A stretch of DNA of 51,960 nucleotides from Deltaproteobacteria bacterium (GTDB taxonomy: Bacteria > Myxococcota_A > UBA796 > GCA-2862545). Positions 43,919 through 49,284 of this stretch are shown in pieces (within the stretch, counting starts at the first letter, position 1; each line of letters starts with the position of its first letter). The notes beneath the pieces are model-generated. The model saw nothing but the letters and a program-made list of their open reading frames with translations. It searched no databases and was not told where the DNA came from. Position numbers and translations under genes: made by a program. The DNA lies in assembly GCA_006226595.1 (NCBI GenBank), contig SBGP01000011.1, positions 1 through 51,960 of the forward strand. The letters are read 5' to 3'.

Positions 43919-46036
43919 TCAGTCCTCGCGGAACGCGGGCTTCTTCCAGGGGTCGAAGCTGAACCCGTAGAGCAGGAAGGCCTCGCCGGCGGGCGCTCCC
44001 TTGTACAGGGCCCACGCGCGGAGCTCGATCTGGTGGCGAAGGCCCTGCCGGTCCGTGTGCAGGCCGATCACGGTGCGGGCGCCGCCGCCGAGCTCCCAGA
44101 TCCCAGCCACGCCCATCGGACCGATGGAGAAGCGCTCGCCGCCGACCGTCGCACCCACCGACACGGTGCCGAAGTGCGACAGCCGATCCGTGCCCGTCGC
44201 ACCGCCCTGGTACAGCAGGTAGCGAAGGAAGGGCGCGCTCTCCATGCCGATGAACAGGCTCAGCGGACGCTTGGGCCCGAAGTCGCTGTCACAGGTGAGG
44301 GCCACCGCTGGCGAGCCACCCACGGCGACGGTGTTGTTCGCGCCCACGTGTGTCCACGAGTACACCGTGCTCGACAGGGACACCGCGGCGCCCGCACCGA
44401 CCGAGAAGCGGCCACACACGGGCATCGCCGCACGGGTCGGACGCTTCGGCTCGGCGCGGGCCTGAACTCGCGTCAGCTCGGGGTACTCCGTCTCGTCCTC
44501 GGGCTCGGGCGGGTCGAGCTCGTTGCGAATGGCCTTGCGGCCTCGCACGGGCTGACTCCACACGTAGAGAATCATCACCTCGCCGGTGGCCGGTCCGAAC
44601 ACGGTGAGGCGGGCTTCGATGCCCTTGCTCGAGCCACCCGCGGTCCACGGTGTGAGCGCCGCGCGAAGTCCCGCGCCGTAGTTGAGGAGACCGCCGGTGA
44701 TGAACGGTCCGGCGCGCAGCGTCGGGCTGCCGAAGGTCGCGCCGAAGGTCGCGTTGGCGAGGTGAATGCCGCCACCTTCGCCGTCCGGGAGGATCCAGAA
44801 GAACAAGGCCGCCGAGTCCAGCCCGGCGAAGAAGCGAGCGTGCGGCCCACCGAACTCGTAGCCGAGGGCCAGGGCGGGGAAGAAGGGGATCTGGACCTCG
44901 GTGGGTCCCAGCGTCGCGCCCATCGCCCAGCCCGAGCCGACGACCACGTGCTGCTGCCGCCGCGAGCGCTCCAGGGGCGTGACCTGCTCGCGTCCGAGGA
45001 AGGAGGGGACCTCGACCCCCATGACCATGCGACGGCGCTGGACCCGTGGCGTGCGCAGCCGTGGACCCGGAGCGGGCCCGTCCTGGGTGGTCTGCGGCGT
45101 CGTGTCCTGTGCCGGTGGAAGCGTGGTGACCGCGTCCGTGCACGAGCCCGTGAGTCCGCGGATCGCCCGGCCGTCCGAGACGATCACGTCCGCGCAGTAG
45201 TCGCCGTTGAGCTCGGCCAGGGCGACGTGCCGCACGCCTGCGGGGGTCGCGTGCGCCTCGACCTCGTCTCCGGTGAGCCAGGTGGACACGCCATCACCCA
45301 CGACCAGCAGCTGGTCCACGCTGGGCAGCAGCCACTTCACGTCGGGGACGGGGGTCTGGCGGTTGGTGTGGTCCGCGACGGTGTAGGTGTCCGGCAGTGA
45401 CCAGGTCCAGGAGCGCCGTGCCCACGCGAGGTCGCCAATCGGTCCGCCCGTCGCGAACGTGGACATGCCGATGGGACCATGCTCGTACACGGTGTCACCG
45501 CCAACGACCGCGTAGCCGACGAGGTCGTTGTGGGCGGCGAGCAGCGGCGTGCCCTCGAGCGCTGGAATGCTCTGTTCCGGCGACCGCACCAGGCCCTGCG
45601 CGGAGGGGTCGAAGGCGCTGATCCATCCGGGACCCGCGGCGACGACGTACGACAAGCCATTGGCGCGCACGACGACGACCTCGGTGCACTCGCGCAGATC
45701 GTAGGTGGTCGCTTCCCCACCATACCGCCCGGCCCACGGCACGCTCCACAGACCCGAGGCGCCGCATCCGACCAGGTCGTCGCGCGCATCGCCGTCGACG
45801 TCGAGCAGCACCGCGGCCCGACCTCCGCGGTCGAGCGATCGCACGACCTCACCGTGGGCGACGTCGACGATCCACGAGGTGTCGTCGCCCATCGCGACGA
45901 CGACGTCGCGAGGGCCCATGGGCGCCGCGACCAGGCCCTGCACGTCGCCGGGCATCTCGATGGGCTCGGACTCGGTGAACTCCCAGGCGAGGGAGGGCGC
46001 GGAGGCGAGGAGCAGTGCGAACGGAAGGCTGCGCAT
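43919..46036 (-). CDS. Exported propeller plus outer-membrane-barrel-like protein
   Basis: A 705-residue protein with ATG at 46036 and signal peptide ending PSLAW. Residues 20-320 look like an integrin/VCBS or quinoprotein-like propeller (LLDVDGDARDDLVGCG, ALAELNGDYCADVIVSDG). A Pro/Gln/Thr linker (about 325-350) leads to a Gly/aromatic-rich C-terminal half (about 375-705) that alternates like an outer-membrane barrel. Its stop abuts the convergent DUF4258-like gene. It would place a propeller at the cell surface or in the periplasm. Function unknown. Confidence 0.72.
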   Translation of the reverse strand: MRSLPFALLLASAPSLAWEFTESEPIEMPGDVQGLVAAPMGPRDVVVAMGDDTSWIVDVAHGEVVRSLDRGGRAAVLLDVDGDARDDLVGCGASGLWSVPWAGRYGGEATTYDLRECTEVVVVRANGLSYVVAAGPGWISAFDPSAQGLVRSPEQSIPALEGTPLLAAHNDLVGYAVVGGDTVYEHGPIGMSTFATGGPIGDLAWARRSWTWSLPDTYTVADHTNRQTPVPDVKWLLPSVDQLLVVGDGVSTWLTGDEVEAHATPAGVRHVALAELNGDYCADVIVSDGRAIRGLTGSCTDAVTTLPPAQDTTPQTTQDGPAPGPRLRTPRVQRRRMVMGVEVPSFLGREQVTPLERSRRQQHVVVGSGWAMGATLGPTEVQIPFFPALALGYEFGGPHARFFAGLDSAALFFWILPDGEGGGIHLANATFGATFGSPTLRAGPFITGGLLNYGAGLRAALTPWTAGGSSKGIEARLTVFGPATGEVMILYVWSQPVRGRKAIRNELDPPEPEDETEYPELTRVQARAEPKRPTRAAMPVCGRFSVGAGAAVSLSSTVYSWTHVGANNTVAVGGSPAVALTCDSDFGPKRPLSLFIGMESAPFLRYLLYQGGATGTDRLSHFGTVSVGATVGGERFSIGPMGVAGIWELGGGARTVIGLHTDRQGLRHQIELRAWALYKGAPAGEAFLLYGFSFDPWKKPAFRED

Positions 46037-46103
46037 ACCGTGAACCTGACATCTCAGCGGGCCGGATGCACGCCGAGGTGACTTTGACGCGTCAGGCACG
46101 AGC

Positions 46104-48131
46104 CTATTCGCCCCCGGGAGGGGCTTCGTCCTCGGGGGTCTCGTCCTCGGGCTCCGGAAGATCTCCGCCCAGCTTCATCGCCTCCATCACCATCGGACGA
46201 AGCTCGTCGTACCGGGAATCGTCGATCTCGACGAAGCTGGTGATGCGCTCGAGCGTGCCCAGCCGTCCCTCGCCGACCACCTTCTCGGGGGAGAACTCGA
46301 GCAATGCCTTCTGCATGGCCGCGACGAGCTCCGGGTCGGCGTGCAGCGCGACGATGGCGTCGTGTGGGGCGCGCCCGGTGATCATCAAGGTGCGGGTCTT
46401 CGACACCGCGATGCCGACGCCCTCCGCGGTCCGCAGCGAGCCGGCATACGTGGCACCGAGGTCACACTCCCCGTTGGCGACGCCCTCGACCACCTTGTGG
46501 TGGTTGCCGATCTCGAACGGGATGAAGTCCTTGTCGGGGTCGAGCCCGATCTGGCGCATCTGGTACGTGGGCATCACGTAGCCCGAGGTACTGGACGGAT
46601 CGGGGTAGCAGAAGCGCCCGCCCTTGAGGTCCTCGAGCTTGGTCGCGTTGGAGTCGTCCGGTACGAGGAGCAGCCCGTCGCTACCGCTACTCTCGTCGAA
46701 CACCTTCATCGCGAGCAGCTCGAGATCCGAGTGCTTGTACTTGGTCTTGATGTACAGCGCGGGCGGGAGCGACGCGAACTGCGCCTTGCCGGCAGAGAGG
46801 TGCATCGCAGCCTGGTCATAGCTCTCGGCGAAGGGCAGCTCGACCGGCCGCTGAAGCTCCTGTTCGAGGTAGCGGCGGAAGGGCTCGAGCTCGCTCGCGT
46901 CCTGCCCGACAACCTCGGGGAACACCATGACCACTGGCTCGCCCTCGGGCGACACGTAGGTATCGACGACGGGCGCGTTCACGTAGGCGTAGATCCCGAG
47001 CCCTCCGAGGAGCACGGCGATCAGCGTCGCCAGGGTCGCGGCCACCGCGGCGAAGCCCATCATGCCGACCGCAGACGTCGTCGCGACGCTCCCGCCACGA
47101 GTCAGGCTCGTCGACGTCGCCTGGGTCGCGCTGCGCTCGAGGGCCTCCTCGACCGCGCTCTTGCGGGCGCGGTGCCGGTCGCCGAGCACGTTGGCGATGT
47201 ACTGCGCCGTCTGGTCCTGATCGATGTGCACACCGGCGGACCGCGCGGCGTCGAGCAGGGCTCGCTGCATCTCGGCCGACGTCTGGTAGCGGTCCTCGCG
47301 CTTGGTGGCGAGCGAGCGCGCGACCACGTCCGCGATGGCTTGCGGCACCTCGGGGCGCATCTCGGTGACGTCGCGGATCTGGCCGGTGACGATGGCCTGG
47401 AGCACGCCGAGCTCGGTGCGGGCGACGAACAGCTTCTCGCCGGCAAGCAGCTCCCAGAGCACCGTGCCGAGCGTGAAGATGTCGCTGCGCCGGTCGAGCT
47501 CCTCCTGATGGCACTGCTCGGGGCTCATGTACGAGAGCTTGCCCTTGAGCACGCCGGTTCGTGTGCGCTCCCCGAGCTCGCTGGCCTTGACGATGCCGAA
47601 GTCGAGCAGCTTCACGTGGCCGCCCGCCGTGACCATCATGTTGTGCGGCGTCAGGTCGCGGTGGACGAGTCCCAGGGACTTTCCGGCCGTGTCCCGCGCC
47701 TCGTGAACCGCGTGCGCCCCGGCGCATGCCTGGGAGACGAGGTTGACGACCACGCCGATGGGCAGGGGATGCCCCGCGTCCGCCCCGGTCTTCACCAGCT
47801 CGCGCAGCGACGAACCGTCCACGTACTCCATGGCGATGAACGGCAGTCCGTCAGCCTCGTCGAGCTCGTAGATCTGCACCACGTTCGGGTGGTTCACCCG
47901 AGCCTGGACCCGCGCCTCCTGGAGGAACATCTGGATGAAGTCGGGGCGCTCTGCGAGGTGCGGGAGGATGCGCTTGATGACGACCAGCCGCTCGAAGCCG
48001 TGCGAGCCGCGATCCGTCGCGAGATGGATCTCGGCCATACCACCGACCGCCAGCCTCTCGACGAGCTGGTACTTGCCCACGTTGGCAACGGGAGCTGGCG
48101 TGGGCAGTGAGATGCGCGAAACCTCCGACAC
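46104..48131 (-). CDS. Receptor-type Ser/Thr kinase with PhnD-like extracytoplasmic binding domain
   Basis: About 675 residues from GTG at 48131; ATG at 48173 is possible but would overlap the mutY start. The cytoplasmic Hanks-type kinase (about 20-300) has the Gly-rich loop ERLAVGGMAEIHL, Lys53, catalytic loop HRDLTPHN (157-164), DFG (177-179) and SPEQ. A transmembrane helix lies at about 355-384. Residues about 398-650 read as a periplasmic phosphate/phosphonate-binding protein of the PhnD type, including FASLPPALYI, CYPDPSSTSGYVMP and NHHKVVEGVANGECDLGA. The tail is Glu/Pro-rich. This architecture suggests direct ligand sensing coupled to phosphorylation. Confidence 0.9.
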   Translation of the reverse strand: MSEVSRISLPTPAPVANVGKYQLVERLAVGGMAEIHLATDRGSHGFERLVVIKRILPHLAERPDFIQMFLQEARVQARVNHPNVVQIYELDEADGLPFIAMEYVDGSSLRELVKTGADAGHPLPIGVVVNLVSQACAGAHAVHEARDTAGKSLGLVHRDLTPHNMMVTAGGHVKLLDFGIVKASELGERTRTGVLKGKLSYMSPEQCHQEELDRRSDIFTLGTVLWELLAGEKLFVARTELGVLQAIVTGQIRDVTEMRPEVPQAIADVVARSLATKREDRYQTSAEMQRALLDAARSAGVHIDQDQTAQYIANVLGDRHRARKSAVEEALERSATQATSTSLTRGGSVATTSAVGMMGFAAVAATLATLIAVLLGGLGIYAYVNAPVVDTYVSPEGEPVVMVFPEVVGQDASELEPFRRYLEQELQRPVELPFAESYDQAAMHLSAGKAQFASLPPALYIKTKYKHSDLELLAMKVFDESSGSDGLLLVPDDSNATKLEDLKGGRFCYPDPSSTSGYVMPTYQMRQIGLDPDKDFIPFEIGNHHKVVEGVANGECDLGATYAGSLRTAEGVGIAVSKTRTLMITGRAPHDAIVALHADPELVAAMQKALLEFSPEKVVGEGRLGTLERITSFVEIDDSRYDELRPMVMEAMKLGGDLPEPEDETPEDEAPPGGE

Positions 48132-48171: not shown

Positions 48172-49284
48172 ATGCGACCCGCGACACACCTTCGTCAAGA
48201 CCTGCTCGCCTGGTACGACCGCCATGCACGCGATCTGCCGTGGAGGCGCCACCCCTCGCCGTACCACGTGCTGCTCTCGGAGCTGATGTGCCAGCAGACC
48301 CGCGTGGACACCGTGCTCCCTTACTTCGCGAAGTTCACGGAGCGCTGGCCGCGACTCGAGGACCTCGCCGCCGCCACCGAACAGGACGTGGTCGATGCCT
48401 GGGCGGGTCTCGGGTACTACCGCCGTGCGCGCTTCCTGCACCGTGCGGCGAAGGCGGCGGTCGCGCGGGGCGGACTGCCCGCCAATGTTCCAGCGTTGCG
48501 CGAGCTGCCCGGGATCGGGCCGTACACCGCCGGCGCCATCGGCTCCATTGCGTTCGGCATCCCCACGCCGCTGGTCGACGGCAACGTCGAGCGCGTGCTT
48601 TCCCGCCTCGACGACCGCGACGCGGATCCGCGCTCGGGACCTGGAAAGAAGGCGCTGTGGACTCGCGCTGAGCAGCTCGTGAGCCCGGAGCGCCCCGGCG
48701 ACAGCAACCAGGCGCTGATGGAGCTCGGTGCGCTGGTGTGCACGCCGAAGCGTCCGAGCTGCGAGCGGTGCCCGTGGACGGCGGACTGCGCGGGCAAGCA
48801 CCGCGCCGAATCCCTTCCCAGGAAAGCCCCCAAGAAGCCACCGACGCGCATTCGCGAGGTCGCGGCCCTGGTGCGGGACGGGGATCGCTTCCTCCTCGCC
48901 CGACGCAAGCCGGGCGGGTTGCTCGGCGGGCTGTGGGAGCCGCCCCGCGCGAGCCCCGAGGAGGGCGAGAGCCTCGAGCTCGCCGCGGTTCGCGCGATTC
49001 GCGAGGGCGTGGGCCTGGACGCACGTGTGGTCGGAGCGCTCGGCGCCATCACTCACGTGTTCTCGCATCGCCACCTGACGCTCGAGCTGTTCGAAGTGCT
49101 CGCCGAGCCTGGGGAGCCGGTCGCCGGGACCTACGCGGAGGCGCGCTACGCCGAGCCAGCGGAGGTCGCGCTGTCCCGACTGGGCGAGAAGGCGGTGAGT
49201 GCTGCGAAGCAGGCCCAGCCGAGCGTGCTGCTCGCCGCCGACCCGTCGCGCGCGGAGTACACTCCGGACGTGGAGACGCGTTGA
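48172..49284 (+). CDS. mutY: A/G-specific adenine glycosylase
   Basis: A 370-residue DNA repair enzyme that removes adenine mispaired with 8-oxoguanine. The catalytic Glu is in SELMCQQTRVDTV, the helix-hairpin-helix LPGIGPYTAGAI precedes the catalytic Asp of PLVDGNVERVLSR, and the [4Fe-4S] cysteines follow the C-x6-C-x2-C-x5-C pattern (CTPKRPSCERCPWTADC). The C-terminal NUDIX-like domain (about 225-350) recognises 8-oxoguanine. ATG follows AAGGAGG. It shares a CATG start region with the divergent kinase gene. Confidence 0.95.
   Translation: MRPATHLRQDLLAWYDRHARDLPWRRHPSPYHVLLSELMCQQTRVDTVLPYFAKFTERWPRLEDLAAATEQDVVDAWAGLGYYRRARFLHRAAKAAVARGGLPANVPALRELPGIGPYTAGAIGSIAFGIPTPLVDGNVERVLSRLDDRDADPRSGPGKKALWTRAEQLVSPERPGDSNQALMELGALVCTPKRPSCERCPWTADCAGKHRAESLPRKAPKKPPTRIREVAALVRDGDRFLLARRKPGGLLGGLWEPPRASPEEGESLELAAVRAIREGVGLDARVVGALGAITHVFSHRHLTLELFEVLAEPGEPVAGTYAEARYAEPAEVALSRLGEKAVSAAKQAQPSVLLAADPSRAEYTPDVETR

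What the first reader, a model, noticed from the sequence alone, without database searches (positions are those of the whole stretch)
46104..48131. Transmembrane Ser/Thr kinase fused to a PhnD-like phosphonate/phosphate-binding domain
The sequence shows a complete Hanks kinase (Lys53, HRDLTPHN, DFG), one membrane helix, then about 250 residues with periplasmic PhnD-type features, including SSTSGY and NHHKVVEGVANG. PhnD proteins normally deliver phosphonates to ABC importers. Fusing one to a kinase would give a one-component receptor kinase for a phosphorus-type or related small ligand. No phn transporter genes are nearby, so this domain may sense rather than transport.
Basis: partly seen in the sequence, partly recalled or inferred. 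Interest (0 to 1): 0.78.

Follow-up and report, generated by a model that had tools for sequence, protein, structure and literature searches.

The report
Receptor kinase with PhnD-type sensor domain
This gene makes a membrane protein whose outer part looks like the clam-shaped proteins that catch phosphonates and similar oxyanions and whose inner part is a Ser/Thr kinase; the same design recurs across the Myxococcota with a signature pair of cysteines, so it is a real but uncharacterised family of receptors whose ligand is not known.

Summary
One intact frame (46104-48131, minus strand, 675 aa) encodes a catalytically complete Hanks kinase, one membrane helix and a PhnD-type domain (Pfam PF12974, E 1e-43; AlphaFold2 pLDDT 92; VIA-align Z 28 to PtxB and AioX). 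The architecture recurs in the window's genome and, in 52 examples counting five truncated at contig edges or split by a stop, across at least 11 family-level groups of the phylum. Leaving the two cysteine columns out, these outer domains fall on one side of a single branch (SH-aLRT 94). All 52 carry Cys508 and Cys556; none of 69 other PF12974 domains do, including two soluble kinase-PhnD fusions that arose separately.

The 'phosphonate' reading is only partly supported. The oxyanion half of the PhnD pocket is kept (Tyr438, Ser514, Ser516, His544) and so is Asp591 (PhnD Asp205), but PhnD Tyr93 and Glu177 are not. The genome has no free PhnD, no PhnJ, and no PhnE, PhnW or phosphonatase above cut-off. 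Best reading: a one-component transmembrane receptor kinase for a small oxyanion-bearing ligand of unknown identity. PhnD-like sensors on histidine kinases (TtrS) are known; I found no paper describing one on a Ser/Thr kinase. New variant of a known kind.

The parts
46104..48131 (-). whole gene, 675-aa receptor kinase, GTG start (an upstream ATG at 48173 would add 14 aa and overlap the divergent mutY start)
   Evidence: open frame; conservation with same-genus orthologue begins at ISLPTPAP, downstream of the GTG
47274..48068 (-). Hanks-type Ser/Thr kinase domain, residues 22-286, all catalytic residues present
   Evidence: Pfam PF00069 E 7.7e-31; motif check
46989..47063 (-). single membrane-spanning segment, residues about 357-381
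   Evidence: hydropathy 2.3 over 19 residues; present in all 48 fusions scanned, median 12-residue linker to the outer domain
46209..46892 (-). PhnD-type periplasmic binding domain, residues 414-641 (fold extends about 397-663)
   Evidence: PF12974 E 1.3e-43; AlphaFold2 pLDDT 92.4 and PDB matches
46818..46820 (-). Tyr438 = PhnD Tyr47 / AioX Tyr88 (oxyanion contact)
   Evidence: alignments; pocket list in PMC5908839
46584..46592 (-). Ser514-Thr515-Ser516 = PhnD Ser127-Thr128-Ser129 oxyanion loop
46500..46502 (-). His544 = PhnD His157 / AioX His192
46359..46361 (-). Asp591 = PhnD Asp205 (contacts the amino end of 2-aminoethylphosphonate in PhnD)
46608..46610 (-). Cys508, invariant in transmembrane kinase fusions only
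46464..46466 (-). Cys556, invariant in transmembrane kinase fusions only
43919..46099 (-). downstream gene, 4 nt after the kinase stop, probably co-transcribed; exported protein of unknown fold, conserved next to the kinase only within the genus

Best explanation
A one-component transmembrane receptor Ser/Thr kinase. The PhnD-type outer domain sits in the periplasm on a short stalk, closes around a small molecule that carries an oxyanion group (phosph(on)ate, sulf(on)ate, arsenate or similar; identity unknown), and the closure changes the pairing of two receptors and so the activity of the cytoplasmic kinases, which phosphorylate cytoplasmic targets not encoded next door. Shown here: the domains, fold, order, single membrane helix, complete kinase motifs, retained oxyanion residues, the cysteine pair, and that the family is conserved across the phylum. 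Inferred: periplasmic orientation, ligand class, closure and dimerisation, and any role of the cysteines.
For: Pfam and NCBIfam matches. AlphaFold2 model of the outer domain, pLDDT 92.4, pTM 0.86, matching PtxB 5o2j (Z 28.2, rmsd 2.3 A, 250 aa), AioX 6esv (Z 28.4), ArrX 6x8w (Z 27.9) and PhnD 3p7i (Z 25.7). Oxyanion residues Tyr438, Ser514, Ser/Thr516 and His544 conserved over the family. Complete catalytic residues in all 46 full kinases checked; the other two of 48 rows are cut by a contig end. One membrane helix and short linker in all 48. Kinase-fused domains fall on one side of one branch, SH-aLRT 94-96. Same order in single-contig genomes G008, G087 and G151. No free PF12974 protein in the genome, no PhnE above cut-off.
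Against: No binding, phosphorylation or localisation data were found for any member; homologues of the fold bind chemically varied ligands, and one structural relative is described as a sterol transporter (7t1m), so even the oxyanion class is an inference. PhnD Tyr93 and Glu177 are lost. The pocket mapping rests on sequence alignments, as model coordinates could not be inspected. There is no conserved neighbouring target or transporter outside the genus.
Confidence: 0.7

Rival explanations
1. Receptor specifically for phosphonate, phosphite or phosphate, used as a phosphorus-status sensor.
For: Closest solved structures are phosphite- and phosphonate-binding PtxB. Tyr438, Ser514-Thr515-Ser516, His544 and Asp591 match PhnD residues.
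Against: PhnD Tyr93 is Ser484 here and variable in the main clade, and Glu177 is not acidic under either alignment option. The genome has no PhnJ and no phosphonatase, PhnW or PhnE above cut-off. AioX and ArrX, which match equally well, bind arsenic oxyanions.
Confidence: 0.15
2. Envelope or redox receptor in which the outer domain is mainly a dimerisation or protein-binding module and the invariant cysteine pair (disulfide made or broken) sets the active state, with the pocket secondary.
For: Cys508/Cys556 occur together in 52 of 52 transmembrane kinase fusions and in 0 of 69 other PF12974 domains, including secreted free ones and two soluble kinase fusions.
Against: Pocket residues Tyr438, Ser514, Ser/Thr516 and His544 are as conserved as the cysteines or nearly so, which argues for real ligand binding. 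A single inherited structural disulfide would give the same pattern, and whether the two cysteines are close enough to bond was not measurable here.
Confidence: 0.15
3. A kinase whose outer domain is a degenerate, non-binding relic.
For: No transport partners; loss of PhnD Tyr93 and Glu177 in the main clade.
Against: Oxyanion residues and the fold are conserved over a phylum-wide family in which outer domains otherwise differ by about 60% or more.
Confidence: 0.05

Closest known systems
TtrS and other histidine kinases with PhnD-like sensor domains (tetrathionate and thiosulfate sensors)
   Same: PhnD-type periplasmic sensor fused to a membrane kinase; 838 such sensor kinases were counted in PMC5408782
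   Different: Those are histidine kinases working with response regulators; here the kinase is Hanks-type Ser/Thr, the sensor is C-terminal after one membrane helix, and there is the Cys508/Cys556 pair, whose presence in TtrS was not checked
AioX / ArxX / ArrX arsenic-oxyanion sensor proteins
   Same: Same fold (Z 27-28); share Tyr88, Ser161, Ser163 and His192 equivalents
   Different: Separate soluble proteins acting through histidine kinases; AioX Cys106 (arsenite ligand) is Pro456 here and Tyr131 is Ser484
PtxB, HtxB and PhnD binding proteins of phosphite/phosphonate ABC importers
   Same: Fold and oxyanion loop; best sequence matches in the PDB
   Different: Free binding proteins delivering to importers; here fused to a kinase, no importer found, pocket altered, cysteine pair added
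GlnH-GlnX-PknG of Actinobacteria
   Same: A periplasmic solute-binding protein controlling a Ser/Thr kinase across the membrane (PMC6069109)
   Different: Three separate proteins and an amino-acid-binding GlnH; here one protein with a PhnD-type sensor
PASTA receptor kinases (PknB/PrkC/Stk1) and ECF43-linked kinases such as PknS
   Same: Kinase, one membrane helix, extracytoplasmic sensor
   Different: Outer domain is PASTA or TPR rather than PhnD-type; the window protein scores 243.6 against the 450-bit cut-off of the PASTA kinase model, over the kinase and membrane part only

Membership tests
Hanks-type Ser/Thr protein kinase | Gly loop, catalytic Lys, helix-C Glu, HRD Asp, Asn, DFG | tested here: met
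   Lys53, HRDLTPHN at 157, DFG at 177; PF00069 E 7.7e-31
PF12974 (Phosphonate-bd) fold family | score over the curated cut-off and PhnD/PtxB fold | tested here: met
   149.6 bits against 27; Z 25-28 to PtxB, AioX and PhnD
PhnD phosphonate ABC transporter binding protein (TIGR03431) | score over the curated equivalog cut-off | tested here: not met
   95.9 bits against 261.1
PhnD phosphonate ABC transporter binding protein (TIGR03431) | 2-aminoethylphosphonate pocket: Tyr47, Ser127, Thr128, Ser129, His157, Tyr93, Glu177, Asp205 | tested here: not met
   Six of eight kept; Tyr93 is Ser484 and Glu177 is not acidic
PhnD phosphonate ABC transporter binding protein (TIGR03431) | partner ABC importer | tested here: not met
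   No PhnE match above cut-off in the genome, 97% complete; weak permease matches only; no importer genes beside the kinase among the genes examined
AioX/ArrX arsenic-oxyanion sensor | AioX Cys106 in the pocket | tested here: not met
   Pro456 at the aligned position
TtrS-type PhnD-sensor histidine kinase (NF040750) | score over the curated equivalog cut-off | tested here: not met
   14.3 bits against a 750-bit cut-off, over residues 486-536 of the outer domain only; the kinase is PF00069
PASTA receptor kinase (NF033483) | PASTA repeats and score over cut-off | tested here: not met
   243.6 against 450 bits, match ends at residue 384; no PASTA domain
Ligand-gated receptor kinase (functional class) | ligand binding changes kinase activity | not testable with these tools
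   needs binding and phosphorylation assays

The most novel reading that the evidence does not exclude
A phylum-wide class of Ser/Thr receptor kinases in Myxococcota whose PhnD-type sensor has been re-purposed, marked by an invariant cysteine pair found in no other PF12974 domain examined, for a ligand or redox signal different from phosphonates; the sensor has moved between kinase lineages as a module.
Probability: 0.3. Interest if true: 0.68.

Novelty: new variant of a known kind. Interest (0 to 1): 0.55.

Why it matters
The signals that switch bacterial Ser/Thr kinases on are mostly unknown; PMC6069109 calls this an outstanding question. Myxobacteria are reported to have a large Ser/Thr kinase family (PMC2877116). 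Here is a widespread receptor kinase with a well understood small-molecule pocket and well characterised structural relatives, so the ligand can be found by ordinary binding screens and the coupling of ligand to kinase tested in one polypeptide. The cysteine pair gives a simple sequence test for membership.

Tried and rejected
Frameshift or two separate genes: rejected for the window (one open frame); one orthologue (L069, Archangiaceae) does have an in-frame TAG between kinase and membrane helix, true break or assembly error not decided. Assembly chimera: rejected, same order in three single-contig genomes. Conserved partner gene: none beyond the genus within about 5 kb. Phosphonate catabolism elsewhere in the genome: PhnJ absent, phosphonatase/PhnW/PhnE only below cut-off. 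Transferrin relationship: the family profile reaches ovotransferrin at E 2.6e-7 and transferrins appear at Z about 20; taken as the old PBP-II/transferrin relationship, not as evidence of iron binding. Cys-Cys distance: could not be measured, as model coordinates are not released. AlphaFold2 of the downstream gene failed (pLDDT 32). Family-wide profile A1 was too diverse for the search for related loci, so a six-member set was used. Papers: no description of a Ser/Thr kinase with a PhnD-type domain found in ten searches of the open-access library; the 2008 myxobacterial kinome paper (PMC2572974) is not held, so a prior mention there is not excluded.

Full report
Observation. Pfam finds Pkinase at residues 22-286 (E 7.7e-31) and Phosphonate-bd PF12974 at 414-641 (E 1.3e-43). 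Lys53, HRDLTPHN (157) and DFG (177) are present. A single hydrophobic segment lies at about residues 357-381, with a linker of about 12-17 residues to the outer domain. A consensus scan found no sigma-70-type promoter and no convincing terminator around the gene, which says little in a GC-rich genome.

Fold. An 18-sequence alignment of outer domains (A1) gave an AlphaFold2 model with mean pLDDT 92.4 and pTM 0.86. Foldseek and VIA-align put PtxB, AioX, ArrX, HtxB and PhnD at the top (AioX 6esv Z 28.4, rmsd 2.6 A; PtxB 5o2j Z 28.2, rmsd 2.3 A over 250 residues; PhnD 3p7i Z 25.7). The refutation condition 'folds unlike type-2 phosphate/phosphonate-binding proteins' is therefore not met.

Pocket. 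Using the residue list of PMC5908839 and the HMMER alignments to AioX and PtxB, Tyr438 = PhnD Tyr47, Ser514-Thr515-Ser516 = Ser127-Thr128-Ser129, His544 = His157 and Asp591 = Asp205. PhnD Tyr93 falls on Ser484 and is variable in the main clade (Tyr in a smaller clade); Glu177 falls on Gly564 or Tyr562 depending on a two-residue gap, and neither is acidic. AioX Cys106 falls on Pro456. So the oxyanion-binding side shared by PhnD and AioX is kept, but the specificity side is not that of PhnD or of AioX. Asp591 is also common in free relatives, so it is not special to the kinase family. Asp485, next to Ser484, is conserved in most of the main clade.

Spread. The window's genome (G000, 7.23 Mb, 97% complete) has only two PF12974 domains and both are kinase-TM-PhnD proteins: the window gene and L002 on contig C1. 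In 63 genomes of the order and 379 of the phylum the same architecture recurs. After removing duplicates the set holds 52 transmembrane kinase fusions, among them five partial or split rows (L088, L099 and L131 cut at contig ends, L038 with a partial kinase, L069 with an in-frame stop), across at least 11 family-level groups, plus named Myxococcaceae, Archangiaceae and Myxococcales MAGs. Orthologues in three single-contig genomes (G008, G087, G151) exclude assembly chimeras. All 46 complete kinases keep every catalytic residue checked, so these are not pseudokinases.

Cysteines. Cys508 and Cys556 (A1 columns 127 and 175) are present together in 52 of 52 transmembrane kinase fusions and in 0 of 69 other PF12974 domains from the same phylum, with no exceptions. 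Some of the 69 were read only over the matched stretch; their open frames are too short to hold a kinase as well. PtxB and AioX have other residues (Ala) at these positions in the alignments. A tree with those two columns left out puts the 52 on one side of one branch (SH-aLRT 94; 95.7 in an 89-row version), while a first tree with four very long-branch rows broke the group. Two kinase-PhnD proteins without a membrane helix (L142, L143, maximum hydropathy 0.35 and 1.05) lack the cysteines and sit among free binding proteins, so kinase-PhnD fusion happened at least twice. The simplest reading is one founding membrane receptor that acquired the pair, probably a disulfide in the oxidising periplasm; a redox role is possible but untested. 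From topology the two residues lie on or next to neighbouring strands of lobe 2, but I could not measure the distance.

Modularity. The window kinase is 53-59% identical to kinases of distant families in the set, while its paralogue's kinase is only 28% identical to it; yet the paralogue's sensor is 48% identical to that of L041, whose kinase is of the window type. The sensor seems to have been moved onto a different kinase lineage (inference).

Context. Upstream and divergent is mutY (48172-49284, HhH-GPD and NUDIX_4). Four bases downstream is 43919-46099, an exported protein without Pfam match, 57% identical in the same-genus orthologue where it also follows the kinase. Within about 5 kb nothing is conserved beyond the genus. 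The genome has no PhnJ, and only sub-cut-off matches for PhnE, phosphonatase and PhnW.

Known or new. PhnD-like sensors on histidine kinases are well known (838 sensor kinases with PhnD-like domains in PMC5408782), as are separate PhnD-like sensor proteins (AioX/ArrX, PMC5908839) and a solute-binding protein that controls a Ser/Thr kinase through a bridge protein (GlnH-GlnX-PknG, PMC6069109). I found no paper on a Ser/Thr kinase with a PhnD-type outer domain in ten searches of the open-access library, which does not cover subscription journals. Verdict: observation confirmed, architecture real and conserved, phosphonate ligand unproven; a new variant of a known kind, with a clean sequence signature and a directly testable ligand question.

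Noticed in passing
L142:60-2579 and L143:1593-3629: Kinase-PhnD fusions without a membrane helix, i.e. apparently soluble, lacking the cysteine pair; an independent second fusion of the same two domains.
   Followed up: partly
L069:4795-6798 (Archangiaceae MAG): Orthologue split by a single in-frame TAG between the kinase and the membrane helix; real gene break or assembly error not decided.
   Followed up: partly
L018, L024, L028, L140, L141 (group f27): PF12974 domain followed in the same frame by a hydrophobic multi-helix part that looks like an importer permease: a binding protein-permease fusion.
   Followed up: no
G336 (loci L105-L109, L131): One genome with six copies of the transmembrane kinase-PhnD family.
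   Followed up: no
window 43919-46099: Exported protein of unknown fold (beta-strand repeats at the N-terminus in a poor model), 4 nt downstream of the kinase, conserved next to it in the genus.
   Followed up: partly
outer domain family profile A1: The profile reaches eukaryotic transferrins in sequence (E 2.6e-7) and fold (Z about 20).
   Followed up: partly
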